Assembly (NCBI GenBank): GCA_001687465.1
Contig: LVLI01000563.1
Location: 1 to 57,127 of the forward strand
DNA length: 57,127 nucleotides
Direction: 5' to 3'
Source of the DNA: Halocafeteria seosinensis
Lineage: Eukaryota; Sar; Bigyra; Bicosoecida
Made by a program: the position numbers and the translations under genes. The first letter of the stretch is position 1; each line of letters opens with the position of its first letter. Below, one piece after another: positions 36,375-57,127 of the stretch. The notes under the pieces were generated by a model that had not been told where the DNA came from, ran no database searches, and was given only the letters and a program-made list of their open reading frames with translations.

Positions 36375-37830
36375 ATGAAGAATCTGGCCTTATTATCAGG
36401 TGTTCTAGTCTTTGCCACGTCCATTTTTATTGTGGATGGTGCTTGTCGTAAGTTGGTCGCTGTGCATTCGATCTGCTTTGGCGAACGGGGCATATTTTTT
36501 GCTGTGTTTTCCTTAAGCGCAGCAAACCAGTGCTCAGGACATGGACGATGCGATGATACGGACAGATGTGTTTGCTTTCGACGCTTTCAGAGGGACGGGT
36601 GGACAGGACCAGACTGCTCACTTCGTATGTAATGAAATCACCGTGGTTCTGATTTTACTGTCCGCAACACTTCTTCGGTGCGCCGGCTACTGCAGGAACA
36701 TGTCCCTATGGTACAGCATGGGGAACTCTTTCTACGCAACCAAATGATGTTATTAAGTCGAGATATCTCCCTGTATTGGACAGTATGTCCAGGAGCGATA
36801 GCCCATTTACTTACGAAATCCCGGGAAAGCTTAATGTCAAAGAAGACTTCACACTAACTCTGGAGATAACTGCGGTGGAAGAAGTTGCAGGTGAACCTCA
36901 CGTCAGCTTTAGATGGGACGTCGGGAACGATGTCAAAACATTTCCAGAGGTAGGTTCATTCCACTCACATCGATAGTCTGTTCTCTAATCTATGGTGTGT
37001 TTCTTCCAGGTGACGGCGTCTGAAGATGGATTTTACAATTCCTTGGCAACGGCAGCAGAAATAACCATTGACGGTGTGCGCACAAATATGTTTGTTTACA
37101 TCAATAACCTTGACGGAAGTACCACCGTAGCAGACTATAAGACCGGCGACAAAGAAGTATGTGCTTACCGAATAGTTGTGTCTTTGACAAGGCCCTATCG
37201 CAACGCGTGCAATGAAACCGTGAATGCAGATCGTCACAGTTTTTGCAAAGTCACACTGGATGTCAACAGATGACAACTCAGCTCATCAGCCAGTAGAATG
37301 TGGTGGAAACGGGGTTTGTGATCGCTCCTCCGGCCAGTGTAAATGCTTTGGCAGTTTCGACGGAGATGCATGTCAAAAGTGTAAGTTCTGCTCCGGGACG
37401 CGCATAAGTTTTCTCCAAATATGAACGAGTGAAGTGATCGCAGTGAGGTGTCCACGATATTGCGGAGGCCACGGACAGTGTATTGGCCAAAGAACTTTGG
37501 CACAAGAAGGAGACAGCACGTACACCAAGGCATGGGATGCAAAGTTGACGTACGGTTGTGTTTGCGATGATGGATATCAAGGAGCGGACTGCACTTACCG
37601 TAAGTCATGCATCGCGGCTTTGGGTCGTTTCACACTTTCACCACTACATGCGTATGTGCTTAACATGTTCAGGAAGATGTCCTTCCGGAGAGGATCCCAG
37701 TGGAGGCCCTGGAGGAAGCGAAGCCAGAGAGTGCTCTGGTCGTGGTCGGTGTAACATGTTGGTTGGGAAGTGTATTTGCGCTAAAGGATATGTAGGCGCC
37801 GCATGTGACAAACATGCAACATCGGTTTAA
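36375..37830 (+). CDS. Secreted EGF-like modular protein A
   Basis: Exons: 36375-36447, 36523-36624, 36696-36949, 37010-37156, 37230-37380, 37444-37599, 37673-37830, giving 346 aa; phases 1, 1, 0, 0, 1, 1. MKNLALLSGVLVFATSIFIV is a signal peptide; an upstream Met at 36354 is an alternative. EGF-1 (QCSGHGRC, CVCF, DCSLR) is one phase 1-1 exon. Then comes an unrecognised about 160-residue domain beginning TCPYGTAWG, then EGF-2 (ECGGNGVC, CKCF), EGF-3 (YCGGHGQC, CVCDDGYQGADC), and EGF-4 starting RCPSGEDPSGGPGG (ECSGRGRC, CICAKGYVGAAC). No membrane helix or GPI signal follows, so it is probably soluble or matrix-bound. The layout is the same as gene E, 14 kb away. Confidence 0.82.
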
Positions 37831-37924
37831 TAATCACAGAGCCACCTCTGGTGAACGTCCATAGTATTGTCCTTGCTGTAGCTTGGCAAGTAGTACTTGG
37901 GGCTCTATTTGGTATCACTCGCAT

Positions 37925-38695
37925 TTACCTGCCGGTTGGACAGTACCCATCACCATTCTTCATTAGATACTTCTGGTGGTACTCCTCTGCCGGCCAGAAC
38001 TTCGATGCTTTCTGAATCTCAGTGACAATGGGTCTCTCGAACTTTGGTTGCCATCGCTCAATAGCGGCTGGAAGCAAAAAGACCAATACCGTGAGTTGAG
38101 CCATTTTTAAGTATACAATTTCCCCCCCAACATACCTTCGGCTTCTTTCCGTTGGTCGTCGTCATGACAGAAAATAGCGGATCTGTATTGAGTTCCTACA
38201 TCAGGTCCTTGTCGATTCTTCGTCGTGGGATTATGCGATTCGAAAAACACGTCCAGAAGAGTTGCATATCTGCATCCCACCCAGCCACTATTCAGAGACA
38301 ACATTTTTCAGACGCGTCAATCCTGCAACATACGAAGTTTTCTCCGGATCATATTCCATCTGCACGGCCTCGGCGTGTCCCGTATCTCCCTTACACACCT
38401 GAAGGAAGCGAAGAAGCAAAGTTGGACGTGGACGTCGACCTGAACCAGACTACATGTACACCACCCTCTTTGCCTTACCTGCTTATACGTCGGGTTCTCC
38501 GTCACTCCTCCCGTGTACCCGACCTGAATTCATTACGCGGTGTCGAGAGTTTGCGGTAGGGCCTCGTCTCGTCCAACGTGCGCTTACCTGGGTGGAGAGG
38601 ACCCCCGGGGTGCGGTAGAACGCCATCTCGACGCCCCAGAAGCATCCTGCCGCAAACGTAGCCAAAGGGCGCGTCGTAGCACTTGTTCCCGACAT
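37925..38695 (-). CDS. MSRA: Peptide methionine sulfoxide reductase A
   Basis: Exons: 38695-38588, 38523-38479, 38398-38334, 38269-38136, 38067-37925, giving 164 aa; phases 0, 0, 2, 1. The catalytic motif GCFWGVE (Cys at about residue 18) is followed across intron 1 by [15 protein letters not shown], then [32 protein letters not shown], and near the C-terminus [12 protein letters not shown] and GYCPTG. The enzyme reduces methionine-S-sulfoxide using thioredoxin. The CPTG Cys is a likely resolving residue. Upstream of 38695 the frame stays open with an extra Met at 38827, so an organelle-targeting extension is possible; two N bases at 38951 and 38955 blur this region. The gene is convergent with EGF gene A, 94 bp apart. 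Confidence 0.92.
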
Positions 38696-38965
38696 ACTGG
38701 CTCCCGATACGAGTAATCCTAGTCCTAACACTGTGGACGAAAAAACAGTGTGGGCTTTGATGGATGGAATACGCGTGCTCTGCAGGACCTGGAACTTACA
38801 GAGAGCAAGGGAATACACAAGGTTCATAGGCGACTTGACAGCACAAGGGTATGTGTGTTGTCTGAAAAAATTGTAGCTCAATCTCTTCCGTATAAAATGT
38901 ACTATTTTCATTGAGAATGACGTCAGAGCAGCAACTTCAATCTCAGCTACNTACNTAGACACCAA

Positions 38966-40751
38966 CTACGCCGAGGAAGAAGTATGGCTTTCGGAAAAAT
39001 GTGGTTGCCAGAGGAGACCGACCTCCTCGCCAGTCTTTTCCGTACTTTGAGCGCTGGAAGCTTGGTTCATATCGAAGGCCAGATTATTGAGACCTTCTTC
39101 TGGGATTCCACCATATGGGACCTGATGTTGCTGCATCGAAAGATGGTTATAGTAGGGAGCCTGATGCACCATGTTCTCTTCTCCTACACCCATATCATAA
39201 GGACTATCCGACATGTACGTGGGCTGTCCTTGAAAACCCATCCATGGGTAATACATTTGATTCATTCCTTGCATATTCTGGTGAACAGGGAACGCTTGTT
39301 GCGGAGGCTGATACAGCATGCCCTCAGCGACGAAGCCACCCGTCCCTGACTGATTAGGTACGTCAGTTCCATACTGTTGTTCTTCCTCATGCTGGAGTTC
39401 TTCCTTTTCAAATATTTTCGCTCTCATTTCTTCGTACGACGCTTCCTTTCGAAGAACCACAGCCGGTCCTTCGTCGGAGTTCTTACTGTTCTCCTCTTTC
39501 CCTTCGCCGCCTTCTTCGCTGTTGGGCGACTTTGCAGTAGCACGTTGCTTGATCTTGATCGATCCTTGGTTCAACCCAGTTCCTGGGCGCTCCAGTCTTT
39601 CCTGTAAAGCTGCACGGACTGGGCTAGTTGTGTCCGTAGCAGCAAACCCTTTCTTCCGTGGGATAAAGTTGTACGCTATTTCCTTCTGTTGCAAGTCTGC
39701 TGGCCCTGAGCAGCGTATAGCTGCAGGATGTTCTCCTCGTTGTTTGCTTTCTCTTGGCACGAATTCACGGCTTTTAATCTTCAATCCTGCAGGCGACGAT
39801 TGAGGTGAAGCAGACTCCATCTCACCTAAAGTCTCCCAAACTACTTGATTCTGTTCACACAAATCCATAAAATGCGCTAAGCTAAAGGAAGGAAAAGTCG
39901 ATGCTTCGCTTCGGAAAACACGCAAACCATGGTGTGTGTTACTTCCTTTTCCCTTTCGCTGTTGATCCTGCTTGTCGTCGAAACCCGAATTCTTAAGTGT
40001 TTGCCGCTGTAAACCGTACCAGTCACACATGCGATGCAAGATCAGGCGATGATAAGATGTCAAGGACTGATACTCTAAGTTTCTTTTGCTGCATTGAAGC
40101 AATACATGATACACGAAATTGACGGCATTAGTACGACTTGACAGTGTCACACGGTAACGTACTTTGAGTCTCGTAGCAACTCCTTGAATTCTTGCTCAAC
40201 CAAGAGCATCCATTTCCTATCTCTTTCTTGTCGGCACGCCTGCACTAGAGCTCGATCTAACGTCGAAAGCATGGCTGCAGAAACAAGGCAAAACAACAGC
40301 CCAGATGATAGCATCAACGCTCTTTCATTGAAACTAGGTCCTTCAACGTACTTGACAGGTCGAATTTCGATTCCTCTTGCTCATGTTTTGCATTCTCGCC
40401 ATTATCTTCTGCAGATGCTTCATTCTTTACAAAGTTGGGTTCAAGTCTATTCGTGTCGTCACTTTCATCTCCTAACCCTAATGAAGACAATGTTCCTGTC
40501 AAGGCAGTGGTGTCACGCCCATTGCACACCTGTTGCGACGGGGAGACTCGCCGTTCATAGTCCATATGAGGGTTCTGGGACTGAGATTTCATCTCCTGAA
40601 CATTCACTTTGCGCTGGGGCTCAACTCCGTTCATACTCATAGACATTGCATACGAGGAAGAACAGGAGTATCCCGGCTCGACAGACGAAGTTTTAGGTGG
40701 AGTTTTCACTTTAATACGCATTTTCCCCGTCCCCTTTTCACTTTGAGACAT
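38966..40751 (-). CDS. R3H-SUZ domain RNA-binding protein
   Basis: Exons: 40751-40319, 40274-40163, 40088-38966, about 555 aa; phases 1 and 2. Intron 1 would be only 44 nt and starts GTTGAT, so its exact donor is less certain. The R3H domain (about 165-235) forms across intron 2: QEFKELLRDSN, then LEYQSLTSYHRLILHRMCDW, with the R-x-x-x-H signature in HRLILHRMC. A SUZ motif follows at about 385-415 (SYEEMRAKIFEKEE) after Ser/Lys-rich linkers. A Gln/Met/Pro-rich tail with many Tyr is typical of mRNA-binding proteins. R3H-SUZ proteins (R3HDM, Encore) bind single-stranded RNA in cytoplasmic mRNPs. The gene lies 270 bp upstream of MSRA on the same strand. Confidence 0.85.
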
Positions 40752-41397
40752 TCTCTACCTAAAGAAAAACACAATCAGAAAATAACTACGGAAAAATATC
40801 CGCTTGGAAAGAGACACAAGCCTCGTATTCACTTGAGAAAGAGGGACTCATTTCGACTGGTGAAAGTGGCGAAACAGGCCGTCTTTTGGTTCTTCTGCTC
40901 CTTCTGCATTCTCACCATTTGCTTCACCCTTCGAGATCAGCAAACTTTAGACAATAATAAAGCTAATCGAACTTTTTCTATTTTGCAAAGACCTCTACCA
41001 ACTTCAATACAAGGCTGGGTAACATGGTGTCTCTTCTTGCTTTTTTCAAAACAGCAACACAGCAATCTTTACTTCTACTTTCCGCTGCGGGAGAAGCGCC
41101 GTTTCGTGGCCACAGTTGCTGCGATTGTGCACCATTAGCTGTAGAAAGAAACGCATTCTCCAAAGCGGCAGCTCTCAACTGGAACTTCTGTAGGACGTCC
41201 TGTTCAGCCGCCTCTTATTTGGGTTCCCCGGAAACCAACGTTTCCCGCTCTACCGCCAACTAGCTGGAGGTCTGTCGAACCAATCATGACTCCCGAGGAG
41301 ACACGCATGAGGCGAGGATCGCTGCGCACATCAGTTCGAGATCCGGCGGCGTCATTGGGTGCACTAGCGCTGTCATGTATGTTATGGACGTCTATCC
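40752..41397. other. Intergenic region, possible 5'-UTR exon of R3H gene
   Basis: A CTTTAG acceptor lies just upstream (minus strand) of Met 40751, so a noncoding 5' exon may lie here. No domain-bearing exon is seen. Confidence 0.35.
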
Positions 41398-42906
41398 CTC
41401 GCGGCGGATTTGTGAAGCAGAATCATAAGAGGAGAAGAAGACTGCTTTCGTTCTGTGGAACTATTCCAGCTGACTTGTAGTACGCTGTCATGGAGAACGA
41501 AGAGATACACAGCCGAGAGTTTCATTTCTCTCAGGCCAAACGAGGTATTCAAAGGTGGGGGAACAAAGTCGATTTGACAGGCATTACCTTATTCAGAGGA
41601 ATGTTTAGAATAATGCATACTGATTAGGAATCTACGAATCGAGAGCGGGCAAGCAGCCCTGCATGGTGGATTCTTTGTCCAGAAGGAGCAACGGTAAATC
41701 CATGTGGATTCATGTAGCTCCACCGGATTGATCAATACTTTCGGAGAGCGGTTTGTGGTGCTCGGTCGGAAGAAGCTGGCAAAATCGGTATGTCGAATTC
41801 CTACTCCACTGGAGTGATATCGCAAGATGGTGTTGGCATCTCAGGAGGATTCGTCGGGATAGATCGGGGGATTGTATATAGGCTGTTATTCCACTGGTCA
41901 CATTGCAGGACGAAGGGCAGGAGGTATTGTTGGAACTCAAACTGGTAAGAGCGAAGGTCACGTCCATATCACCCAATCATACTCCACAGACAATATTCTG
42001 GATAGTGGCAGCATTATCGGTTACTGGGCCGGAGTTTCCGGAGGAAGTGTGTACATACAGAACTGTTATACAATGGGAGAAGTTTCCGCAATGTCTACCG
42101 GCGGCATTTGTGGACACTGTGCACCGAAGACAACAATGGTGTATATCGAAGACTCCTATGCGCGGGGAGCGACCACTGGTGACGACGGTTGGAGACGCCG
42201 GGGGATACCATGGATCCGACGAAAGTAGCGCAGATACTGTCCTCATTACCAATCGTACGCTTCCGCTTTTGTTATGGCTTCTTGGGGGGCGGAATCGTAG
42301 GAAGCATCGACAGGAACTCAATTGCTTTGGTTCAAGTAAAACATTCGGTGTACAATAACGGCGATGACGGTACATCGCTCGTGGGATACGACTTGAAGGT
42401 TATAGCAAAAGATATCGAAAATTCTGGAGACTTGCAGGACATAAAGAGTCAACTCTACGTATGTCAGGGATGTGACGAGACCGAGCGATGGAGCAATGGT
42501 ACCTGGGCTGTAAACGGCACAAATAACTTAACCATGCTTCGTTTCCAAATACCGTGTTTCACTCCCACCTCGACCACAACAGCTACAGTCATTCCGTCTG
42601 GCTCCACAACACCGACGACATCAGCGTCAGTATCGCCATCGAGAAATGACCATCCCCACATACTCGCAGTCAAGCACTGTATCTCCAACTCGTACGAGTT
42701 CAAATACTGCTACCAGTACCAACACAGTATCCACAACCAGTTCTCCCCCAGGCCCAAGCGCCACAGCAACAGTTACCACTACTGGTACTGGAACTCAGTC
42801 CCTGCCACCGGTCGTCAGATCGAGAGACTTTCTTCGAATACAGTTTCCCGGAGATCGGTTAAACAAACACCTAGGTGGTGTGAGCAACAGACGCCGTGAA
42901 AAATAG
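41398..42906 (+). pseudogene. Decayed GLUG-repeat gene, paralogue of the gene at 1-1265
   Basis: GLUG repeats and flanking blocks of the left gene recur here in order, but spread over all three frames with stops. RGGFVKQNHK (about 41402) and GGFFVQKEQR (about 41665, then a stop) both resemble GGGFIVRSHQR of the left copy. Repeats such as NSYSTGVIS, GCYSTGHIAGRRAGGIVG, NCYTMGEVSAMSTGGICG and GGGIVGSIDRN follow. The block VKHSVYNNGDDGTSLVGYD aligns with IDHCVYNGSGSDSIIGID near position 100 on the minus strand. A Thr/Ser/Pro-rich stalk (about 42550-42800) ends the gene, with another frameshift near 42640. At least four breaks are needed, so sequencing error alone is unlikely. No signal peptide is found upstream. 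Confidence 0.72.
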
Positions 42907-43394
42907 AGTAGGGGATCGGTGTAGATTAAAAAATACTCCGTTGGAGGAATAATAATATGCCCTCGTCCCGTCTTTTCTCATTACGGTTCTGTCCCGCGCG
43001 ATTTCTTTGCTTTCCCCTAGCAACTCAGGTAGACTGGATCGATAACACTAGGTTAGAGCATTCAAGCCCAGAATTCCACCAAGACGGTGAGAGATCACCG
43101 CCTCCGTAATAGAAGGAGTTGCTGCTGTCCAACCTATCTTCACTGCACTTCAGTTTTCAGACATCTCTTATAGTGATTCCTCTAAGGAAGCATAACAAGT
43201 TGCCCCATAGTTCACATTGGACGCTTTGCCGACACTGTTGTCAGAATCAGACGCGATATAGCGCCATATGCCGTATCCCTCAACTTCCGCTCAATACGAA
43301 TTAGGATCATGATCATCGCTACGTTCATGAGGTTGATTTTACCGGTTCTCCGCGATCAATACTCTCCAAAGTAGGCTAATTTTGCCGCTTGCCC
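42907..43394. other. Intergenic region, nothing recognised
   Basis: The stretch lies between the GLUG pseudogene end and the convergent thymidine kinase stop. No feature can be supported. Confidence 0.4.
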
Positions 43395-44274
43395 TCAATC
43401 AATACTTTTCAAACTGTCAAAGACTCTCTCATTCCACTCACGGAGAGACAGCGGTCGTGAAACAAAGTGCTGCGGACAAGCAGGTTGATATCTCTCGGCG
43501 TCCCCAATAGACACGATATCCGATCCACCACTCTCAAGACGCTGAGTATATGGTGCGGGAGCACCACATACGGACCCTGTAGCATCCACATGAGTGCAGT
43601 TAGACACAAAATGATTACTCTCCCCTGGTATTTCACGAGAGCCTTTCAACATATGACAGATGTCTAAAACATGACCGAAGCGTTCTCCCCGGAAGTCTAA
43701 ATCCAATCCAGCGAAATACAAAGCAGGGTCTGAACCATCCCCCCGAAACTCTTGTTCATACCGCTTCCAAAACCTAATCAGTGATTCGTCAAAAAATTGA
43801 GCCTGCACGAGAGTTGAACACTTGAGTTTAACTGAGTGAAAGCCTGGCTGACTTCTTACATACTTCGTCGATGGCGTATACCGTGTGCGGCATTAATTCC
43901 AGGGAATCCAAGGTTGACAGAGGCAACGCGTGATCAATCTGATGCCCATCCCGAGAGCGAATAACTGTCGATGGAGTCCGCGTATCAGCTGAATGCTTCA
44001 CTGCCACGACTCGATGGAATCGTGGGGAGGATACCGAGGGTGCTCGGGACGCTGCTGCCTGGTTATAAGGCGAATGATACAAAATGCAATCTTGCGTTTT
44101 CCGTATCAAGTGCGATGTCTTCCCACTGCATGACCAGTAAAAACGCATAATTACTAACCATGTACACGGATTTCCGACTTCATACCTCCACATGGGTCCA
44201 TAAAAGACTCGTACGAAGTCGAACACCGAGGTTGACTTCCTCGCCGACATCGCCCATCCATTGACAGGGCTCAT
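43395..44274 (-). CDS. Thymidine kinase, type II (TK1-like)
   Basis: Exons: 44274-44186, 44125-43864, 43802-43395, about 252 aa; phases 2 and 0. The P-loop FYGPMWSGKTSHLIRK is assembled across intron 1. YAIDEAQFF (Walker B and catalytic Glu) is assembled across intron 2. FAGLDLDFRGERFG is the conserved strand and lasso lead-in. CGAPAPYTQR plus YQPACPQHF give the zinc-site and nucleoside-binding lasso, with C-x-x-H replacing the usual C-x-x-C/H variants. The enzyme phosphorylates deoxythymidine in the salvage pathway. The start is uncertain: 44274 and 44250 are both in frame, and the exon is open further upstream without an ATG. Length fits the cytosolic type. Confidence 0.88.
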
Positions 44275-44629
44275 GTTCGAGCACGTGTTACGGACTCGGC
44301 ATTTCCAAATATGAGCATTCAATTTTGCTGGTTCCTTCTTCCAAACACGCAGGATAATGATGAAGTAAATACTTACTTCAACCAGAGTGTCACTTTCTGC
44401 AGCATGAACAATACTTAATAGCTACCTTGGTCATAGACCGCATTTGGAGATTTCGAAAGAAGGAATGGGAACATAAACACAATTTATGACAAAATAGGAG
44501 CTAAATAGATACAGACAGTCTAGTAGAAGTTGAGTGTTTACGTTCATCGTTCATTTGTCTTGCAGCTTATCATAGGACAGGTGGCCAATATGACAGTGAG
44601 TGCTAACTAGTATCCCCAGTAGGAAGTCT
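44275..44629. other. Intergenic region between uL16 and thymidine kinase genes
   Basis: Both neighbours are on the minus strand; the uL16 gene lies upstream and this stretch should hold the thymidine kinase promoter. Nothing else is recognised. Confidence 0.4.
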
Positions 44630-45402
44630 TTAGAACCCAAGAGGTCCTTTCTGCTTGATTTCCTTAACATGTACTCCATCGGGTACCAAAGTGCCTTCGT
44701 TACGCATCTCCTGGTAGGTATCGCGGTTGTACTCTGTGAATCCCCACTTTCTGGACATAATGGTTTTCTGACGGCCGGGGAATTTCATCTTAGCACGGCG
44801 CAAAGCTCCAATGATGGATTCTTTATGCTTATCGTGAGATCTGACACTCATCAAGATCTGTCCAATATGTACGCGTGCAACTTTTCCCGCTGGCTTACCG
44901 TAGGCATGGCGCATACCAGTTTGGAGCCTATCGGCACCAGCACATGACAACATTTTGTTGATACGAGTCACATGGAAAGGGTGAGCGCGAATTCGGAGAT
45001 GGAATCCGTCCTTACCACAGAACTTGGTCAAGTTCTTGTTGCATGCAATACGAGCAGCCTCGAGAGCTTCACTGGAGATCTGTTCACGTTCATCAGAAAC
45101 CAAGTGAGCGACGAAGGGGAACTCATCTACATCGGCTTTCTTATGACCGTTGTCGTAAATGCGAATCTTGGGGTCTGTATATACAATTGGGAAAATGGGT
45201 AAGAAGTGAAGCCCATCTCCTTCAGGAAACACAAGCCCTCCACGGGAGCCTTCCCACGGCTTCTGACCCGGGGGATCAGGAGGCCATGGGACGTCCACAT
45301 GTATCAGGACCCTCACATACCTGGCACACCGCGCAAGTACCTGGATTTGATCCATGGTTTGTTCTTGCAGTAGCGGTAGCAACGAGCTGGTCGACGTCCC
45401 AT
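44630..45402 (-). CDS. RPL10: 60S ribosomal protein uL16 (RPL10, QM)
   Basis: Exons: 45402-45321 and 45174-44630, giving 208 aa; one phase 1 intron of 146 nt. [20 protein letters not shown] followed by [15 protein letters not shown] is the canonical start, recovered only after splicing. [20 protein letters not shown] (the P-site loop region), [16 protein letters not shown] and GQILMSVR complete the fold. The C-terminus GPLGF is slightly shorter than in animals. uL16 sits at the corridor between A site and peptidyl transferase centre and joins late, in the cytoplasm. Confidence 0.97.
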
Positions 45403-46121
45403 TTTTGCTGCTTGCTAGAAGTCTATTGATACCTTCTTTCCAAATGTTGGCTGCACACACATACCCACAAACGCACAATTCAAGTAAATTCGGTCGATTT
45501 ACCTATAATGGTTGCGCGTGGCATGCAAATAAAGAGCCAAGCTGCACTCGCAGAGACACCCCCACAGGACTCCAGACCCCTCTCCCCGTAGAATTCCCCT
45601 TGCAACCCTTTTTGTTACAGTCGCCCCTACAGCCCCGAACAAAAGGGACCGGGTGGGTAGCTTCGGGGGGCGACCAAGGGGATAAACCACCGTGGGGTCA
45701 CAAGGGTCATCGGCGCTATAACACAAGTAGATACTCTACTTGCATGCCACGCATACGCAATCACTCGGCTATCAACATAGTAGAATTGAATAAATTACTT
45801 ACCCTGTCCTATGCACAATCCAACCCCGACGATGATGATGTGTTATACTGTGTGGCCTTGAACCAGAGCTTTTCCGGATTGTAGGAAGTTTTCGGGCCGA
45901 ACACGCCCGAACAGTGGAATTCAAAAGCCATAGTCATAGTTTGTAACCACGTTGTATCCATAATAAGTACTTAACATGATGATCCTTGACTTGCAAGTAA
46001 TAAAGAACGATTTTCTAAGCTTGTGCGGTTCGTTTTTTTGTATGCAATGTTTGCACTGCATTCTGTGAATAGGGCCATTCTGGAAGGAAGGAAGTGATGA
46101 TAGCTAAGACTACCTATGTAC
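45403..46121. other. Intergenic region, nothing recognised
   Basis: The stretch lies between the uL16 promoter side and the 3' end of EGF gene B. A pyrimidine-rich stretch around 45550-45640 and short open frames are present without support as genes. Confidence 0.4.
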
Positions 46122-47756
46122 TTATGAAGCATCTCCATCCTGCGTATCTGACAAAGTCTCAGATACGACAGAATCTTGACTTACACCTCCGTTGGACTGG
46201 GCAGATTCCTGCTGCTGTCGGTTCCTGACGCCTTCACCTGACCTCACTTTGCCTGCTGCAACGTCCTGAACAGAACAATCGAGGAAAGTGTATCCAGGAA
46301 AGCAAGAACACAGGCCAGTTCGATGATTGCAAAGCCCACGGTTTGAACATGGAGACCTTTCTTTATTGCCAACTTGATCACTGCGGATGTCGCGAGGGAT
46401 TACGATAACTGGCTCGCCATCTTCAAACGCTGCGGCTTTCCACGAGTTACCGTAGTGGTTGACTTTTAGAGGATAAGCTACTCCCGTAGGTCTAATGAAC
46501 TCAATAGTAATATGAAACAGCTGATCCTCTCCTGTCAGCTGAGCGCTTCCACATGAGCTGCTCAAGTCATCTTCTACCGTGTGGCACGTAACCTTAACAT
46601 TTTGCACAACATTCCCTGGTATTGACTCCAGAGACTTTTCGACGAAAACAAGAAGATCTGTTGCTGTAGAATTGAAGTTAGCTGGATGCAGTCTATGCCC
46701 ATAGGTCTCCCATTCAGTCAGGAAGTGGTCGGTGAACACAAGAGCAAACATGCCAGGTTCGGTTACTGCGAAATGAAGCCACATTCATTTTACTTTCATT
46801 CACCTCCAGAACCCTAGCCAGAAGCTAAGCTCTTACCTGTAATCCTCATATCAAATGTTATAGTTTGTTGGTGGTTTCTACATTTTTCGCCTCCACAGGT
46901 AAAAGCTTCTGATGTCAGTGGGTCGTCTCCGCGCGGACAGTCTCTCATGGAGCAGTCCATTCCAAAGTATCCTGGGTCACAAATGCACGCATATTGCATA
47001 TCCCGATCCCATGATTCATATTCGAAGGCTTGTTGGACTCCTTCAAATTTCCGTTCACCAGCCACGGCATCAACTTCCCTTTTATTCAAAGCGCCGGCAG
47101 CGATGTCTCCTACTGATCTGCAGGTCCCGTGGCCGTTGCATTGACTGGGACATGTGCCTGCACAGCCAAGTGAATATAATTTATCGAGTGTCAATTTAAT
47201 TCCGTAGTGTTCTCAGTTAGACATACTTCTTTGGCAGGAAGATCCTGTGTAGCCTTGAAAGCACCTACACAATCCTGTTTCTCGTTGGCAAATCCCCTTC
47301 GCTGAGCACTCCTGATAAAAGTGTGCTTCATTAGGGTCTGCTTGAAACCCTCCTTTGTCCTTCTTAGTCGGAAAGAATTCCGGGATTTCTAAGTTGGTAT
47401 TTCTGCGCTCATCCATCACATATGCTTCATCTGACAGAGCCTGACTGCCATCGTGGTTTAAGTCTCCTTGATGAACATCAGTCCAGGCAAATCCAAAGGG
47501 ACACAAGCGCTGACTGCAGTCACCCCCAGTGAATCCCTTATAGCATTCGCAGCTATCGTGAATACCACAGACACCATTTCCAGAGCATGTATTTGCTGCA
47601 GCAACGACTCGAGAGGGTGTGCACAGATCAGGAAAGGGTATCCACCGGCAATCACTTACGACATTCTGCTATTGCGTTCGTGGCGAAGCACAAGAGCAGT
47701 ATGGATATAAACACCAGCGCAAGCACGCTGTTGTTTGATTTAGTACAAGGCTGCAT
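46122..47756 (-). CDS. Secreted EGF-like modular protein B
   Basis: Exons: 47756-47660, 47595-47227, 47157-46837, 46765-46122, giving 476 aa; all introns phase 1. The signal peptide contains SVLALVFISILLLCFATNA. EGF-1 (TCSGNGVC, CECYKGFTGGDC) leads into RLCPFGFAWTD and an acidic spacer. EGF-2 follows (ECSAKGIC, CRCFQGYTGSSC). The third module starts TCPSQCNGHGTC, has a helical insertion with ALNKREVDAV and ends ACICDPGYFGMDCSMR. Then DCPRGDDPLT opens an unrecognised about 150-residue domain with beta-type sequence and N-glycosylation sites, followed by EGF-4 (PCSNRGLC, CSCFPGYTFLDC). The tail is acidic and Gln/Ser-rich, with no membrane anchor. The gene is head-to-head with gene C. Confidence 0.85.
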
Positions 47757-48187
47757 TGTTGATGCTTCGATTAGATCACTGCGCAGCACATCATCTTTTG
47801 CTCTCCTGTACTAGTTTTCTCGCACCGCTATGTTCTGAATTCGCGCAAGCTTCACCATATACTCAATCCATAGATGGATCTAATTCTCACATTCCAATAA
47901 CGACTCTGTGTATTACTTAGTTGCAGCATGTCTCTTTTCAGTATCGTTGAAAGAAGAGAGTCGACGAGCCGCTCAGTGGCAAACCGTTGAATACCGACTA
48001 CATCAACCGGGCGTTGCCTCCAGTTCATTACAGCACCGTATGTATAGTACAGTGTCAAATATAATGCTCACAGAGATAGACTAAAAATGCATCTCCATCT
48101 CCTGCTTCCTTCTAGGAGACACTGATAAATGGGAGCATAAAGATATTGTAGACTGCGCTGCATTTTTGGAACGACGTCGAGCTGACA
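47757..48187. promoter_or_regulatory. Shared bidirectional promoter region of EGF genes B and C
   Basis: The 431 bp separate the start codons of two divergently transcribed paralogues. No TATA or other element can be assigned with confidence, but joint regulation is plausible from the arrangement. Confidence 0.45.
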
Positions 48188-49674
48188 ATGAAAGTGTTTA
48201 AGCATTGTGCTATCATTCTATGTCTAGCAGAAGTAGTCTTTGCTGCTTGCCGTAAGTACATCTTATGCACTTAAATTGACGTCTTCCCCTCTAACGCACT
48301 CGTCTCTGATACAGCACGTGGATGCACGGGACATGGTGAATGTGGCAAGCACAACGCGTGCACTTGTTTCCCTGGATACATTGGACATGGTATGCTTGCC
48401 TAGAGTTAGAGCATACCCAATGTACTAAAGAGGAATATCGTACTGGTTTGCAGACTGCGATCAACGCCTGTGCCCTCAAGGACTTGCCTGGGCAGATCTT
48501 CCTCGAGGAGACTTGAACTACGATGGTGTCGTCACACGGACGGGCATAGACCAATACGTGTCTGTCCCTTGGTCAAATGTGCTTGAATATGAAGGATTTC
48601 CTTCGCAAGACGTCTCTGGAGCTCCTTATTCTGCAATGGATGACGAAGGCCATTTCTATGCAGAGTGCAGCAATCGCGGGAGATGCCTTCGGTTCTCCGG
48701 AGAATGCGACTGCTTCGATGGTTTCAGCGGGCATGCTTGCCAACGAGGTACGAGAAAACGCTGCTATTATATGCCTAGCTCATCCACTCTAATTGCTGTT
48801 GCCCCCTTGCTGACGCTCAGAGCCGTGTCCGAATAATTGCAACGGCCACGGAAAGTGCCGTACAGCTAGAGAAATCGCCAAAGGCAAGCTGAATAAGAGA
48901 AGGGAAGTTTCCGAAGCAGGATTCATAAGGACATCAGGGGTGACACAGGCTTTTGATTATAATTTGTGGGATGCGGACAAAACGACATCTTGTGTGTGTG
49001 ACCCGGGATATACAGGAATTGATTGTGCTCTGCGAGAGTGTCCTCGCGGTTCTGATCCGCTACTATTTAAGCGACGGTTTTGTGGAGGTAATGTGTGTCA
49101 CTACGCAATGGTGACGTTTCAGCTGGGAGTGGCCGTGGGGACCCTGCAGTTCTCCTTTGTAGACCATACTCGCGCCCGACATTCAGTTTTTGTAGACGTC
49201 GACACTACCAGGGACGCTCATGGGCTTATCCCAGCAGAACAAGCAAAGACCCGTATTCCTACTCCAGACACAACTGCCGGAAAGATCATGGCAGCATTGA
49301 GAAACAACTACCCAGGCAGGCTTTTATCAAGAATTGAAGTGAGAGCCGTCGATGGTATGGCAGGCGGAGAATCCACATACCATATCACGTTCACCGGAGT
49401 TCCCGGGAAACAGGAACTCATTGAAATTACAGGCGAACCCACGGAAGGCACCGGAATTGATGCCCCATCATTCGTTAAGAGTGACGACCCGTTTATACAA
49501 AATGTCGAGGGTGGGAAATTCTTTGACTCAACAGAAGCGATAACATATGATGGCAACCTGGACGAATCACAGTGCTCCGGAAGAGGCGCATGTGACTACA
49601 GCACGGGGATCTGTCAATGTTTTGCAGGATATTCTGGAGGATCTTGTGAGACCCAAAACGTACGCGTATTCTAA
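48188..49674 (+). CDS. Secreted EGF-like modular protein C
   Basis: Exons: 48188-48251, 48315-48389, 48454-48747, 48821-49674, giving 428 aa; all introns phase 1. MKVFKHCAIILCLAEVVFAA is the signal peptide. EGF-1 (GCTGHGEC, CTCFPGYIGHDC) is split by an extra intron just before its last Cys. RLCPQGLAWADLPRGDLNYDG parallels the B spacer. EGF-2 (ECSNRGRC, CDCFDGFSGHAC) and EGF-3 (NCNGHGKC, KLNKRREV, CVCDPGYTGIDCALR) follow, then ECPRGSDPL and the unrecognised beta-type domain, then EGF-4 (QCSGRGAC, CQCFAGYSGGSC) and a very short tail. It is the closest paralogue of B and is convergent with D (52 bp). Confidence 0.86.
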
Positions 49675-49726
49675 ATTAGTTCTGCCTTTGTTTATTACAA
49701 TTAAATATTATAAATGAAGTAGACGC

Positions 49727-51756
49727 TTATCCCAAGACATCTTGTTCGCTACAAGAAAGACCGCTGAAGCCGGCAAAGCACTCACATTGACCTGTCGAAT
49801 AGTCACACAGTCCACGTTGTGAGCATTCAGCGTTTTCCACATGTCGACTCACAGTCTCAGAGTTCTCAGGATCTTCAGATACATGTGCGGTAGAGCACTT
49901 TGGCAGTTTGTACATAATTTCAAAAAGTCGGGCTTCTCCTTGATCCACCATATCGGCTGAAGGAAGGCGAACCCAAACCCCAGGGAGATTGGGAATTGGA
50001 AGACGCTTGTATGCATCTCCTGAAGTGGGGATATTACCCATAAACGTATAACCTGGAGGTACTCGGGTTGCAGATTCCCCGATATCTGGCAATGGTGGAG
50101 ATGCATGCACATCTCCCGGCTCCATTTGTCCGTTTAATTCTTCCAGAGCTAAAGAGTTCTCACCGGCATTGTTGCCTCCAACATGAGCATACCACGAATC
50201 GACTCCTCCTTTCTTGTCAATGAGAAGCAAGGAGATCCTGACATCGAATTCCTCGTCTGCATTTACGACCCATCCTTCTCCAGCAGGGAGACCTGGATCG
50301 GACTCAGGATGTAATAAGACCACTTGTTTCGCATCCCATGCTTGTTGTATCTGGGAGTTGCGGTTAAGCGGTGCAGCATCAATCGGTATCGAAGCGCCCG
50401 AGGTATTGAAAGCACTCAACGGGAAAGATCCTGTAGAGACGTAACGAACGGCATACGGTATCTTCACTCGAGGCTTGCATCCTGGTTGGCTGCATGCAAA
50501 TGGAGCGACGCACTGCAGCAAGTTCTTATTCCCCACCAATAGTCCATTTTTCGTGTCCGGAACGTAGTCAACTCTAACTCGTACAATCGGAGTGGCACCC
50601 CCGGAGTCCGTTTCATCGAAATCGTCATCGAACCAGTTTTTCGTCACTTGTACGTTAACCTCTTGGACTGCAAAAGACGGGAGACTCTCTAAAGCATTTT
50701 TCAGGTTTTCACTAAAGTCTCCATTGGGGTTTATAATTCGTTCAACAGCAGGTGCGTCCCATCGCTGACCGAAGCTGTCTTCAAACCTTAGGAAGATGCG
50801 CTCATCATATTCGTCGTGGGTATCAGCACTGATTCTGATACGGGAACTCAACGAGGCATCACCCACCGTGGTAAGGGGCCTGTCAGTAGATGTCTGCTCA
50901 TTCGGTCCTACGACAGTCATCGGTATCGTATATTCTATGATCTGAGATACGAAATTTTTGTCATGCTGATGCACTAAATCGCCATCCTCATTAACGAACG
51001 TTGTGCAGTGGGTTCTTGGATCATCCCCCGTCGGACACATGCCTGCGAAACGGACTCCATGTTAGTGGAATTTTGCAAGCGGTAACGCTGTCTCGAAACT
51101 CACGTTTGCTACAGTCGCTTCCAGTGAATCCAGGGTCGCAGACGCATTTGAAGATTCTATCCGCCTCCCATCCTTCGTCGCTGGCTACGTTGGGCAGGCA
51201 ACTGACAGAGCTGCACCGACCATGTCCACTACAATCGTTGTGGCATTTTCCTGCAGACTCCAGTTCCTTACAGGTCACCATCACCAGTTAACATTTTGCA
51301 TACATTTCTTACTTCTTTGACACGCGTTACCAGTGAATCCCGGCTCACACTGACATTCTCCTGTGCTACGATCACACACTCCTTTGCCTGAGCATTCTTC
51401 ATACCAGTGTGGATCTGCAGCATCTTTTCCCCAAGACCTCCAGAACGGGCACGTCCCTGGTGTGTCGACAATGCAAGGGGTGCATTAGGAAAGACGAACT
51501 ATTTACATGCAGGAGTCTTACTCTGGCCACAATCCCCATTCGTAAATCCTGGCCAACACACGCAAAGTCCATCATCGGTGCATTCTCCTCGTTGGTTACA
51601 GTTGTTTACTGCAATGTGATCATATCACACTAAGCACCGTGTTCGGCACAGTAATGGCAAATGCTGAAGGCCACACGTACCGCATGCACCGTGGCCAGGA
51701 TTCGCAATAGCCAACGCTGTCAAGAAGACCGTGTATATGATGTTATAGCCTTTCAT
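49727..51756 (-). CDS. Secreted EGF-like modular protein D, largest of the cluster
   Basis: Exons: 51756-51681, 51608-51522, 51456-51313, 51250-51104, 51042-49727, giving 589 aa; all introns phase 1. MKGYNIIYTVFLTALAIANP is the signal peptide. EGF-1 (NCNQRGEC, CVCWPGFTNGDC), RTCPFWRSWGKDA, EGF-2 (ECSGKGVC, CQCEPGFTGNAC) and EGF-3 (DCSGHGRC, CVCDPGFTGSDCSKR) are each coded by one phase 1-1 exon. The last exon starts MCPTGDDPRTHC and encodes an enlarged central domain of about 370 residues, about twice that of B or C, then EGF-4 (ECSQRGLC, CECFAGFSGLSC). No membrane anchor is seen. The enlarged domain has repeated beta-type segments and a W-R-L-P-type end; I cannot assign it. Confidence 0.85.
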
Positions 51757-52208
51757 GTTGCACTTCTGCTTTCCGAGATGCCATACAAAGTGTTGATGAA
51801 GGGTATCCTAGCTGTGTTTTAGGTCACCCATGTTTAAGATACCGTGGAATCTGGCGCTGAGTGATAGAGATCAGATATAATTCGGCCAACAATACAATTC
51901 TAAAACATTCCACCGTAGCATCTATTCACGCACCGCCTATGTAGCCAGTGTTGGAGGTGGTTTACTTCAGCTTTGAGCGCTCAGACCGCAACGGCCTGCT
52001 CAGCGGCTCACGCACCGATCGACTTCATCCACTTGACTGCACAGAAGGTAATACAATTACCGTGTATTGTGTTGAAAATTACTATAACTGCAATTAGAGC
52101 TTGGGTTTTGGAAAACGATGGGGCTGTTTATGGAGCTGAAGAAGTAGCAATATCCGTTGACTTTGCAGCCTCGTCATGCTTCGTCAACCATCATGGCAAC
52201 GCCATGGT
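51757..52208. promoter_or_regulatory. Divergent promoter region of EGF genes D and E
   Basis: The 452 bp separate the start codons of D (minus) and E (plus). No further exon or repeat is recognised; promoter function is inferred from the arrangement. Confidence 0.4.
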
Positions 52209-53482
52209 ATGGGCTATTACCTGGGCCTGCTTTCAGTTGTGTCTCTCTGCACACTAGTATTGTCTAAATGCCGTAAGTAAAGCGGCTGGTTTGAACACGT
52301 TTGGGTATCCTGCAAACAATGAGAGCTTCTGATTGCAGCAAATCAGTGCAATGGCCACGGAACCTGTGGCACCAACGACAAATGCAGATGCTTTAGGCAA
52401 CCTGGAACAAAATGGGAGGACACATTCATGTTCGTCGGAGCAGATTGTTCAAGAAGAACGTGTCCACTGGGTCGATCGTGGGATCAACTACAAACGAACG
52501 GCATGAATGCCACAAATATTCAGTTCTCACCAGCAAAGATAAAAGGAGCAGACTCATCACTGAACTATTTGAGATTTTACACGGACTGGATTGAGCGAGA
52601 TATCAAGCGAGACATTGATGTCGAAGTATTAATAATAGACGATGGAAAAGATGGGGACCCTTCTTTCGTCTTCAAATGGCAGGATGATCCCGAATTCGGT
52701 AGACCACACAGAGTTCTTGACCACCGGACTATTACCTCGGCTTTAGGGTTACAGCAAGTATTCGCTCAAGATAAGGACGCAGGTATATATATTTGGTTCG
52801 ACCCTTCGGCAGATCCCGCTTTCGATGAAGAGAACCCACAGTACTTCCAACGCATGTATCAGAAGGACAGATACACATTTACTGTCAAATACAACTATGG
52901 AGTCGTTTTCAACGCTGGGGATCCCAACACTGCCCATCAATTTATCGAATGCTCAGGTCGTGGCACTTGCGATACCACAACGGGAACATGCAAATGCGAT
53001 GTACATCATGACGGGGCAGCATGCGATAGAAGTATGTGTAATTTCGGTTTTCGGTTAGAACCCAAATGTTGTCATTACTAATTATTAAAAATTGCAGAGC
53101 TGTGTCCTAATAAGTGCAGCGGTAGGGGAGTCTGCCAAAGTCTTCAGCTGATGATTGACGATATTAAAAACTCAGATTTCGTTTACGATAAGCCATGGGA
53201 CGCTCAGTTGGAAACGGGATGCAAGTGCGATCCAGGGTTTACTGGACCGGACTGTTCTTTGCGTACGTTTTCAAGTTTGAACTCCCAATCTTAGAAAAAA
53301 CGACAGTCGATTCGTTTCTTGCAGGCGAGTGCCCATCGGGCAGCGATCCAATGGGAGGTTTAGGCGGAGCGAACGGTCGAGAGTGTTCTGGAAGAGGAAC
53401 GTGCAACCGAGTAAAAGGTACATGTACCTGCTTTAAAGGTTTTACAGGAGAGAAATGTGGAACGCAAACGAATTTTCAATAA
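52209..53482 (+). CDS. Secreted EGF-like modular protein E
   Basis: Exons: 52209-52272, 52339-53031, 53098-53262, 53325-53482, giving 359 aa; all introns phase 1. MGYYLGLLSVVSLCTLVLSK is the signal peptide; two other ATGs just upstream are out of frame. EGF-1 (QCNGHGTC, CRCF, DCSRR) runs directly into TCPLGRSWD and an unrecognised about 150-residue domain with DIDVEVLIIDDGKDG, all in one exon. EGF-2 (ECSGRGTC, CKCDVHHDGAAC), EGF-3 (KCSGRGVC, CKCDPGFTGPDC) and EGF-4 (ECPSGSDPMGGLGG, ECSGRGTC, CTCFKGFTGEKC) follow. The order matches gene A, with CPSG-DP-GG-GG before the last EGF in both, so A and E form one subfamily. Confidence 0.86.
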
Positions 53483-54745: not shown

Positions 54746-55153
54746 TGTGTTGTGCTAGGGGATTTACCCGTGCCGTGGCGGGGCATGTCCGTGCCCGCCC
54801 GGTATTGCCCGGCCCTCTCGCCCTGCAAGCCGGCGCTCAAAGGGGGTAATCTTACAGAGGAATTGCAAGACATATGCTACGTGTAGTGAATGACTACCAT
54901 GGCAGTTATGTTCTGCTTTCCATTCTTATTAGATCACGAATTGATGCATTTCTATTCACCAAGGGATAGGTGTTTTCCGATACTTTGAATCTAGCGTCAC
55001 AAGGGCGAGCGTTTAGAAGAACGATGGCGCATAGTAGGCTTAGATACTAAAACCAGGAGGATTTCCGTGGTATTACAAAATGGAAATACGTCCAACGCAT
55101 CCAAACAATTGCCTGAGAGACTGTCCGTCCGCTTACTACAGACGGGAGATGCG
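54746..55153 (+). repeat. Left arm of a 408-bp inverted repeat
   Basis: The arm matches the reverse complement of 55648-56054 almost base for base. I see only a handful of substitutions and two small indels (a missing about 7 nt near the outer end and a 12-nt insertion near 54823). The arms include a GC-rich outer part and an AT-richer inner part. Confidence 0.92.
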
Positions 55154-55220
55154 TGTTGTACAAGCCGAGTTCTGAACTTCTGATACATGCATCGAACTTG
55201 GTACAGAGATACCCCAAGCT

Positions 55221-55590
55221 ATGAGGAAACAGAACGCACAATGCAGGTGGATTTGGTACGCAGTCTTGCTTCCTTTAGCTCCCGTTCTCTCGAGGCCAAT
55301 TCTCATTGGCCATAGAGAGCCAGGAAATCGATCGAACTACGATGGACGATGGACTTCCCAAGATGTTGACCACAAGAAAGTTGAAAGCGATAATAGCCCG
55401 GCAGCAAACGACGCTCTTGATGGCGCCTGTATATGTATTAAGGGAACATGAAACACCAAGTGACCCTAAGCAGATGGTTGCGTACGTTCCACAGAAGGAC
55501 GCGAGATACACAAAGGAAACGATCCGCCACAGGACGGAACTCATCGCCTCACTGGTTACACGAGGTGTTTCTTACTGCATGGAGCCATAA
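55221..55590 (+). CDS. Doubtful small open frames in the inverted-repeat core
   Basis: Two overlapping frames fill the core. The first (55221-55451, 76 aa) begins with a signal-peptide-like stretch, IWYAVLLPLAPVLS. The second (55306-55590, 94 aa) is basic and helical (TTRKLKAIIARQQTTLL). They may be one frameshifted gene, a captured host fragment or chance frames. No family is recognised. Confidence 0.25.
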
Positions 55591-55647
55591 TTAAATTGAA
55601 TGCACTTAAGTCTCCCCTCAAAAGCGTGCGTTTCAGCTTCACCAATG

Positions 55648-56054
55648 CGCATCTCCCGTCTGTAGTAAGCGGACGGACAGTCTTTCAGGCAATTGTTTGG
55701 ATGCGTTGGACGTATTTCCATTTTGTAATACCACGGAAATCCTCCTGGTTTTAGTATCTAAGTCTACTATGCGCCATCGTTCTTCTAAACGCTCGCCCTT
55801 GTGACGCTAGATTCAAAGTATCGGAAAACACCTATCCCTTGGTGAATAGAAATGCATCAATTAGTGACCTAATAAGAATGGAAAGTAGAACATAACTGCC
55901 ATGGTAGTCATTCACTACACGTAGCATATGTCTTGCAATTCCTCTGTAAGATTACCCCCTTTGAGCGCCGCGAGAGGGCCGCGCAATACCGGGCGGGCAC
56001 GGACATGCCCCGCCACGGCACGGGTAAATCCCCTAGCACAAGTTGCACAACACA
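55648..56054 (-). repeat. Right arm of the 408-bp inverted repeat
   Basis: This is the reverse-complement partner of 54746-55153. The match ends at the GGGAGATGCG block on the inner side and at the TGTGTTGTG block on the outer side. Confidence 0.92.
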
Positions 56055-56601: not shown

Positions 56602-57127
56602 TCATCGGCGGCATCTTCGGCTTCGAGTGATTATCGTATACAGCCAAGATAGATTGGTCACTGTCTTCTTCGCATCTTCAGCCACATAGAAGAACTTACT
56701 TTGAGCAAGCATTTTCAGTTTCTCAAGTTTTAGACTGCTTTGTGAGTCTGTGTGTATCGCGCCGAGGTGGCTGAGCAGCCGCTCAACTTCGACGCTAGTC
56801 GGCTTTATTTTGAAGAGTTTGAGAGCAAGTGCGCGTAGAGGACCGCCAGTTCTTTCATCAATTTGTTCCCAGTATGTAAGGGCGTCATAATGCCACCACT
56901 TTGCTCATGTTTTCCATCCATTTCTGCATGACATTGGAAGTCACATTGACAAGCTTTCGGAGCTGTGGTACTCCTTCGAAATATCGACGACATTTAAAAC
57001 GCGGGATGTTCACCTATCTTGCCGATGTTGTATCCATTTAAGCTTCTTCGTTTTTTGTCACTCCAACCATCAAGCTGCAAAGTGTATCCTCCATCACTTT
57101 CACGGATATCTGACCACATTACTTGCC
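56602..57127 (-). pseudogene. Decayed hAT-superfamily transposase, cut by window edge
   Basis: Three frames on the minus strand carry transposase pieces in the right order. At the right edge, GGYTLQLDGWSDKKRRSLNG matches the catalytic-core L-x-x-D-G-W-S/T-D motif and runs into a stop. FEGVPQLRKLVNVTSNVMQK follows in another frame. The C-terminal hAT dimerisation region then comes in a third frame: YWEQI, PLRALALKLFKIKPTSVEVE, RLLSHLGAIHTDSQ. This end is quite well preserved, with the usual S-x-x-x-E-R pattern. At least two frame breaks plus the stop make it non-functional as read. Its 5' part lies outside the window. Confidence 0.72.

What the first reader, a model, noticed from the sequence alone, without database searches (positions are those of the whole stretch)
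36375..53482. Family of five secreted EGF-like modular proteins with an unrecognised central domain
Genes A (36375-37830), B, C, D and E (46122-53482) share a signal peptide, four EGF-like modules and a Cys-Pro-x-G-x-D-P-type linker next to a central domain I cannot assign. None ends in a membrane anchor. Two layouts exist: A and E place the central domain after EGF-1; B, C and D place it after EGF-3. B-E sit on alternating strands as head-to-head and tail-to-tail pairs, which points to local duplication with inversion. This could be a lineage-specific matrix, adhesion or mating-surface system.
Basis: partly seen in the sequence, partly recalled or inferred. Interest (0 to 1): 0.78.

Follow-up and report, generated by a model that had tools for sequence, protein, structure and literature searches.

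The report
Flagellar-hair (mastigoneme) protein gene cluster
The five secreted EGF-type genes belong to the known family that builds the stiff tubular hairs on the swimming flagellum of stramenopiles, so they are relatives of a described system rather than a new adhesion or mating system, although the likely host organism has, as I recall, been described as hairless.

Summary
All five gene models rebuild cleanly (19 GT-AG introns, no internal stop) and share one scaffold: N-terminal signal-like stretch, EGF1, CPxGx(A/S)W, EGF2, EGF3, CPxGxDP, EGF4. The "two layouts" are two insertion sites; inserts at the two sites show no detectable sequence kinship.

The interpretation changes. A profile of A-E matches the six chains of a solved tubular mastigoneme, PDB 9ufe (OCM proteins), at E 1.3e-49 to 3.1e-71. 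All 18 organism-named rows of 240 listed relatives are stramenopiles. Best reading: subunits of the stramenopile tripartite flagellar hair. A and E score closest to 9ufe_DA and OCM3, B and C to the other four chains, D is undecided; a short tree agrees for E and B/C but puts A and D elsewhere. Recent local duplication is not supported.

Possible surprise: the host is probably Halocafeteria seosinensis (MTR4 98% to a GECG01 transcript; that accession's identity is recalled). I recall it as described without mastigonemes, and full-length A, B, C and E were not among the listed database hits.

The parts
36375..37830 (+). Gene A, 7 exons, 339 aa: SP-EGF1-[site-1 insert]-EGF2-EGF3-EGF4; scores closest to 9ufe_DA (209 aa) and OCM3, but the tree does not place it with them
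46122..47756 (-). Gene B, 4 exons, 476 aa: SP-EGF1-EGF2-EGF3-[site-2 insert]-EGF4; scores closest to OCM6 (9ufe_FA)
48188..49674 (+). Gene C, 4 exons, 428 aa: site-2 layout; 9ufe_BA, AA, EA and FA within 8 bits
49727..51756 (-). Gene D, 5 exons, 589 aa: site-2 layout with a long (~390 aa) insert; 9ufe_EA and AA best, class undecided
52209..53482 (+). Gene E, 4 exons, 359 aa: site-1 layout; 9ufe_DA and OCM3 best, same clade in the tree
36722..37283 (+). Site-1 insert of A (spread over exons 3-5, introns included)
   Evidence: bounds worked out by hand from the exons
52482..52931 (+). Site-1 insert of E, inside exon 2; beta-rich model (whole exon mean pLDDT 83.6)
   Evidence: bounds by hand
46359..46918 (-). 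Site-2 insert of B (intron 46766-46836 included)
   Evidence: bounds by hand
49060..49566 (+). Site-2 insert of C; alpha/beta model (whole exon mean pLDDT 72.4)
   Evidence: bounds by hand
49841..51016 (-). Site-2 insert of D
   Evidence: bounds by hand
47757..48187 (.). 431-nt region between the starts of B and C, candidate two-way promoter
   Evidence: function inferred
51757..52208 (.). 452-nt region between the starts of D and E, candidate two-way promoter
   Evidence: function inferred

Best explanation
A-E are members of the stramenopile tubular (tripartite) mastigoneme family (OCM / SIG / MAS) and encode subunits of the stiff hairs of the anterior flagellum. Shown here: anchorless proteins with a hydrophobic N-terminus, the four-EGF scaffold with its two linkers, and strong scaffold kinship to the six chains of a solved tubular mastigoneme. 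Inferred: the proteins enter the endomembrane system, the disulphide-knit EGF scaffold packs subunits side by side and end to end into the hair, and the inserts at site 1 or site 2 give each subunit its own place or surface; the hair is then exported to the flagellum, where (reported for Phytophthora) it enables thrust reversal. E would be an OCM3/OCM4/SIG3-class subunit, and A by score and layout; B and C belong with the other OCM chains; D is undecided. Divergent gene pairs would help make partner subunits together.
For: PDB profile search: all six 9ufe chains (names: tubular mastigoneme protein, OCM3, OCM5, OCM6) at E 1.3e-49 to 3.1e-71; next best teneurin-2 at 6e-13. Each protein alone finds all six chains, best E 1.3e-47 (A), 3.1e-56 (B), 2.7e-46 (C), 9.8e-35 (D), 1.8e-53 (E). 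[quoted passage not shown] The genome has the flagellar-transport gene IFT46. Family matches on 12 other contigs with C and a 13th (C170) with E; a second head-to-head pair joining both layouts on C76.
Against: The kinship rests on the EGF scaffold: the inserts of E, B and D alone (that of C was not tried alone), and an eight-row profile of the site-1 insert, find no PDB chain. In the 95-column tree a 97/88 branch sets A and D, with the two-module database proteins, apart from all six OCM chains, E, B, C and the C76 pair, although A's scores and layout point to OCM3 and 9ufe_DA. No transcript or protein evidence: full-length A, B, C and E are not among the 240 listed hits, where their own scores should have put them, while this organism's MTR4 is in the same database. 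If the organism is Halocafeteria seosinensis, I recall its description as lacking mastigonemes. Some family matches elsewhere in the genome lie in much longer open frames (up to 2000 aa) and need not be hair subunits.
Confidence: 0.8

Rival explanations
1. The genes are relics or re-used copies: the lineage lost its flagellar hairs and A-E serve another extracellular role (feeding surface, adhesion, gamete contact) or are fading.
For: Recalled description of the likely host as hairless; a bicosoecid, Cafileria marina, has smooth flagella without hairs (PMC6723347 passages) and bicosoecids come with or without tripartite mastigonemes (PMC6492006 passage); no transcript-derived match for A, B, C, E among the listed hits.
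Against: All five frames and 19 splice sites are intact and 24 cysteines are invariant among diverged paralogues, which does not fit decay; the host identity and the hairless description are recalled, not tested here. No dN/dS test was run.
Confidence: 0.17
2. A lineage-specific matrix, adhesion or mating-surface system unrelated to flagella.
For: EGF-rich modular proteins without membrane anchor; Sig genes were first found as sexually induced genes of a diatom (PMC8027222, passages).
Against: Scaffold-wide match to all six chains of a solved mastigoneme, far above the best animal EGF protein (E 3e-71 against 6e-13); named relatives in oomycetes, brown and yellow-green algae, diatoms, bolidophytes, pelagophytes, Cafeteria and Hondaea.
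Confidence: 0.03
3. On the origin of the cluster (not a rival on function): it arose by recent local duplication with inversion inside this window.
For: Alternating strands with head-to-head and tail-to-tail neighbours.
Against: E groups with OCM3, the 209-aa OCM chain and SIG3 (98/92), B with C76minus from another contig (99/91); identity of B, C, D, E to A is 36-41%. The tree has only 95 columns; no smaller supported set holds A or D.
Confidence: 0.08

Closest known systems
Tubular mastigoneme subunits of PDB 9ufe (OCM proteins; recalled to be Ochromonas)
   Same: EGF1, EGF2-EGF3 core and EGF4 with the same linkers; A and E align with 9ufe_DA to their last EGF
   Different: In the printed alignments 9ufe_DA and OCM3 have about 14 residues between the AW of the first linker and the first cysteine of EGF2, where A and E have 141 and 156; the inserts of B, D and E are too diverged to match any PDB chain alone
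Sexually induced (SIG) proteins of diatoms and Tribonema 'sexually induced protein 3' (P0299)
   Same: E matches P0299 at 9.7e-53 and groups with it
   Different: P0299 is 212 aa with no long site-1 insert
Stramenopile EGF proteins of about 700 aa (Tribonema P0024, Cafeteria P0041, Triparma P0051, Pythium P0057; also Phytophthora P0111)
   Same: Same EGF2-EGF3 core, found twice in the first four and three times in P0111; the Ectocarpus row P0094 showed one
   Different: A-E carry one module each
Unnamed environmental proteins P0241-P0293 and others
   Same: Same layout as E: 62 of the 240 listed proteins carry a site-1 insert by a length rule, e.g. P0242 with 43% identity over 98% of E
   Different: Organisms unknown; 0 of 18 organism-named rows carries the insert
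Teneurins and other EGF_Teneurin proteins
   Same: EGF module type (Pfam; teneurin-2 E 6e-13, angiopoietin-1 receptor 3.6e-7)
   Different: Teneurin chains are ~2400 aa and are matched over single EGF modules (best stretch 17-60 of the profile)

Membership tests
Stramenopile tubular mastigoneme proteins (OCM/SIG/MAS) | Sequence kinship over the EGF scaffold to proven hair subunits | tested here: met
   All six 9ufe chains, E 1.3e-49 to 3.1e-71 with the profile; each of A-E alone. Which OCM class: clear for E, by score only for A, undecided for D
[quoted passage not shown]
   (signal peptide by hydropathy only, weakest in D)
Stramenopile tubular mastigoneme proteins (OCM/SIG/MAS) | Host is a flagellate stramenopile | tested here: inconclusive
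   IFT46 present; MTR4 98% to GECG01005718, recalled as Halocafeteria seosinensis, a bicosoecid (taxonomy); ectoine synthase matches on two contigs fit
Stramenopile tubular mastigoneme proteins (OCM/SIG/MAS) | Inserted (central) domains of the same fold as in the solved hair | tested here: inconclusive
   Inserts of B, D, E and a site-1 profile: no PDB sequence match; fold searches do not list 9ufe; B's insert gives a weak profile match to the site-2 region of the database proteins (hhalign 59%)
Stramenopile tubular mastigoneme proteins (OCM/SIG/MAS) | Protein located in the hairs of the anterior flagellum | not testable with these tools
   Needs microscopy or proteomics
Teneurin / tenascin-like EGF adhesion proteins | Kinship beyond single EGF modules | tested here: not met
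   Teneurin best stretches cover about 40 profile positions, E 6e-13 at best against 3.1e-71 for 9ufe

The most novel reading that the evidence does not exclude
A hypersaline bicosoecid described as having no flagellar hairs keeps an intact, multi-gene set of hair subunits, arranged in head-to-head pairs and with an extra insert in subunits related to OCM3/4. Either it builds hairs in a stage or salinity not yet examined, or it uses the EGF-scaffold polymer without a visible hair.
Probability: 0.35. Interest if true: 0.62.

Novelty: new member of a known kind. Interest (0 to 1): 0.4.

Why it matters
The hairs give stramenopiles their name, and a solved structure (9ufe) now lets subunits be recognised by sequence. 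This window supplies five intact genes from a poorly sampled branch, shows that two layouts are one scaffold with two insertion sites, and shows diverged subunit genes side by side. If the host is the bicosoecid described as hairless, it makes a direct test possible of whether the 'loss' of the defining organelle is real, stage-dependent, or only an observation gap.

Tried and rejected
Central domain as one shared domain: rejected. Profiles of 62 site-1 inserts match E (83 bits) and A (44.5 bits); site-1 against site-2 gives hhalign probability 0.1. The site-2 profile gave B 9.8, D 5.7, A's site-1 insert 3.2 and C 0.2 bits, so common ancestry of the three site-2 inserts is not shown; that profile may hold EGF edges, since C76minus matched it in three pieces and part of C76plus in two.

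Shared promoter motif: CTGAGCGGCTC with up to one mismatch occurs four times in the window, three of them upstream of A, between B and C, and between D and E; but I spotted it by eye in those regions first, the stretch upstream of C76plus has none (GAGCGGCT with one mismatch), and shared 8-mers among four upstream regions were no more than in random stretches (1 against a mean of 1.12). Not claimed.

Modelling of the other family members was not done except for the C76 pair (by eye); a motif scan of 13 fetched stretches and the window gave only partial pictures.

Not in print: I do not claim it. The listings of eight paper searches showed no title on the 9ufe structure or on mastigoneme genes in Halocafeteria, but 9ufe was not used as a search term and most subscription journals are not held.

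Mended on re-reading: I had left out that the tree sets A and D apart from the OCM chains, had put D with a class, and had given odds that overlapped; the best explanation went from 0.88 to 0.8 and the re-use rival from 0.25 to 0.17. Family membership as such I hold at about 0.95.
Full report
Observation. The five models were rebuilt from the sequence. Exons: A 36375-36447, 36523-36624, 36696-36949, 37010-37156, 37251-37380, 37444-37599, 37673-37830 (+); B 47660-47756, 47227-47595, 46837-47157, 46122-46765 (-); C 48188-48251, 48315-48389, 48454-48747, 48821-49674 (+); D 51681-51756, 51522-51608, 51313-51456, 51104-51250, 49727-51042 (-); E 52209-52272, 52339-53031, 53098-53262, 53325-53482 (+). 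All 19 introns are GT-AG and 60-94 nt long; 17 of 19 are phase 1. There is no internal stop. This is far beyond chance: Pfam EGF_Teneurin and EGF_2 match all five and 24 cysteines are invariant.

One scaffold, two insertion sites. The alignment of A-E shows the same order in all five: hydrophobic N-terminus, EGF1, a linker of the type CPxGx(A/S)W (CPFWRSW in D), EGF2, EGF3, CPxGxDP, EGF4. A and E carry their long insert after the first linker (site 1), B, C and D after the second (site 2). The inserts of A and E are related to each other and to the site-1 region of 62 database proteins; no relation between site-1 and site-2 inserts was found, and kinship among the three site-2 inserts was not shown either.

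What it is. A profile of A-E against the sequences of solved structures finds all six chains of PDB 9ufe, named tubular mastigoneme protein, OCM3, OCM5 and OCM6, at E 1.3e-49 to 3.1e-71, and then a drop to teneurin-2 at 6e-13. Each protein alone finds all six. A and E score highest with 9ufe_DA (165.5 and 185 bits) and OCM3 (145.7 and 161.9), above the other four chains (at most 120.5 and 112.1). B is highest with OCM6 (194.5; then 154.7-161.9 for three chains, 107.5 and 93.6 for 9ufe_DA and OCM3). C scores 153.9 to 161.5 with four chains and 118 and 94.1 with 9ufe_DA and OCM3. D is undecided: 102.8 to 123.4 with five chains, 9ufe_DA among them, and 90 with OCM3. Papers seen in passages agree on the family: Sig proteins lie on mastigonemes (PMC3879662; [quoted passage not shown] infestans genes are low in hyphae and induced at sporulation or in sporangia (PMC3471859).

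How it probably works. Inferred from family knowledge and anatomy: secretion, disulphide-locked EGF units packing into a tube, export to the anterior flagellum, thrust reversal (the last reported for Phytophthora, PMC12223298 passage). The inserts would give each subunit a specific position or surface. The head-to-head pairs B/C (431 nt) and D/E (452 nt) and the second pair on contig C76, one site-2-type gene and one site-1-type gene facing apart (the plus gene scores 100.9 bits with the site-1 profile), suggest shared promoters; this is inference, and a search for a common motif was negative or biased.

Origin of the cluster. In a tree of 48 core segments (95 columns; the program warns of few columns) E lies with OCM3, the 209-aa OCM chain, Tribonema SIG3, one environmental protein and two short proteins that I take for diatoms (Leptocylindrus P0318 and P0297, the latter from its gene prefix only) (98/92); C76plus lies with environmental P0241 (95/73) in a group of proteins of E's layout (94/81); B with C76minus (99/91), C next to them (98/72). 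Against a simple reading, a 97/88 branch sets A and D with the two-module proteins, apart from E, B, C, the C76 pair and all six OCM chains, so A's OCM3-like scores and layout are not borne out by this short alignment. The tree does not support recent local duplication with inversion for E against B and C; for A and D it is open. The family has further matches on 12 other contigs with C as query and one more with E, in exon-size pieces; some lie in open frames of up to 2000 aa and need not be hair subunits.

Which organism. The window lies in a 30.6-Mb, 605-contig assembly. Its MTR4 helicase is 98% identical over the whole length to a EukProt entry from transcriptome GECG01 (next best 61% over 85%). 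I recall GECG01 as Halocafeteria seosinensis; no paper listed confirms it. Ectoine synthase matches on contigs C33 and C93 fit, since ectoine genes are reported in that species (PMC5924519 passage); P2X-receptor matches on three contigs, one of six over the cut-off, fit weakly (PMC5447177 passage). I also recall from the abstract of the species description (Park et al. 2006; not held) that it had no mastigonemes. Bicosoecids are described as with or without tripartite mastigonemes (PMC6492006 passage) and Cafileria lacks flagellar hairs (PMC6723347 passages).

Expression. No full-length A, B, C or E is among the listed database hits: against my own rebuild of the query profile they score 522, 381, 383 and 546 bits, above the 344 bits of the last listed row, E alone was the query, and the highest identity over more than 100 residues to any of the 360 fetched proteins is 55%. 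D (215 bits) is not testable this way. The only positive control is MTR4. This hints that the genes were not expressed, or not assembled, in that transcriptome; it is weak evidence, as the tool's profile may score a little differently, and fragments outside the length limits would be missed.

Verdict. A well-described family, correctly spotted anatomy, wrong novelty claim. Family membership I hold at about 0.95, a working role in hairs of this organism at 0.8. What stays open and interesting is whether a supposedly hairless flagellate uses these intact genes, and what the site-1 insert, seen in 62 unnamed but 0 of 18 named relatives, adds to the hair.

Noticed in passing
54750-56041: Large near-perfect inverted repeat: arms 54831-55168 / 55633-55970 (338 nt, 97%) and 54750-54821 / 55970-56041 (72 nt, 99%) around a 464-nt centre; looks like a foldback or terminal-inverted-repeat mobile element close to gene E. 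The centre holds a 103-aa open frame without Pfam match.
   Followed up: partly
56605-56904: Minus-strand 100-aa frame near the window edge that by eye resembles the C-terminal dimerisation region of hAT transposases; no Pfam match at 0.001, so a lead only.
   Followed up: partly
L039 (contig C76) 2338-5826: Second head-to-head pair of the same family: a site-2-type gene on the minus strand and a site-1-type gene on the plus strand.
   Followed up: yes
contig C134 near 337789-339078 (L040): Mastigoneme-like core with CPHGDDP inside a 2000-aa open frame; may be a giant member of the family.
   Followed up: no
41863-42228: Open frame with repeated Gly-rich segments followed by a Thr/Ser-rich stretch (to about 42900), perhaps a surface protein; the 121-aa frame has no Pfam match.
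   Followed up: no
43398-43892: Minus-strand frame with a thymidine kinase match (Pfam TK, E 8.9e-07).
   Followed up: no
36177, 47966, 51999: CTGAGCGGCTC-like 11-mer upstream of A and in the middle of both head-to-head gaps; found by eye first, so possibly chance.
   Followed up: partly
38951 and 38955: Two undetermined bases (N) in the assembly.
   Followed up: no
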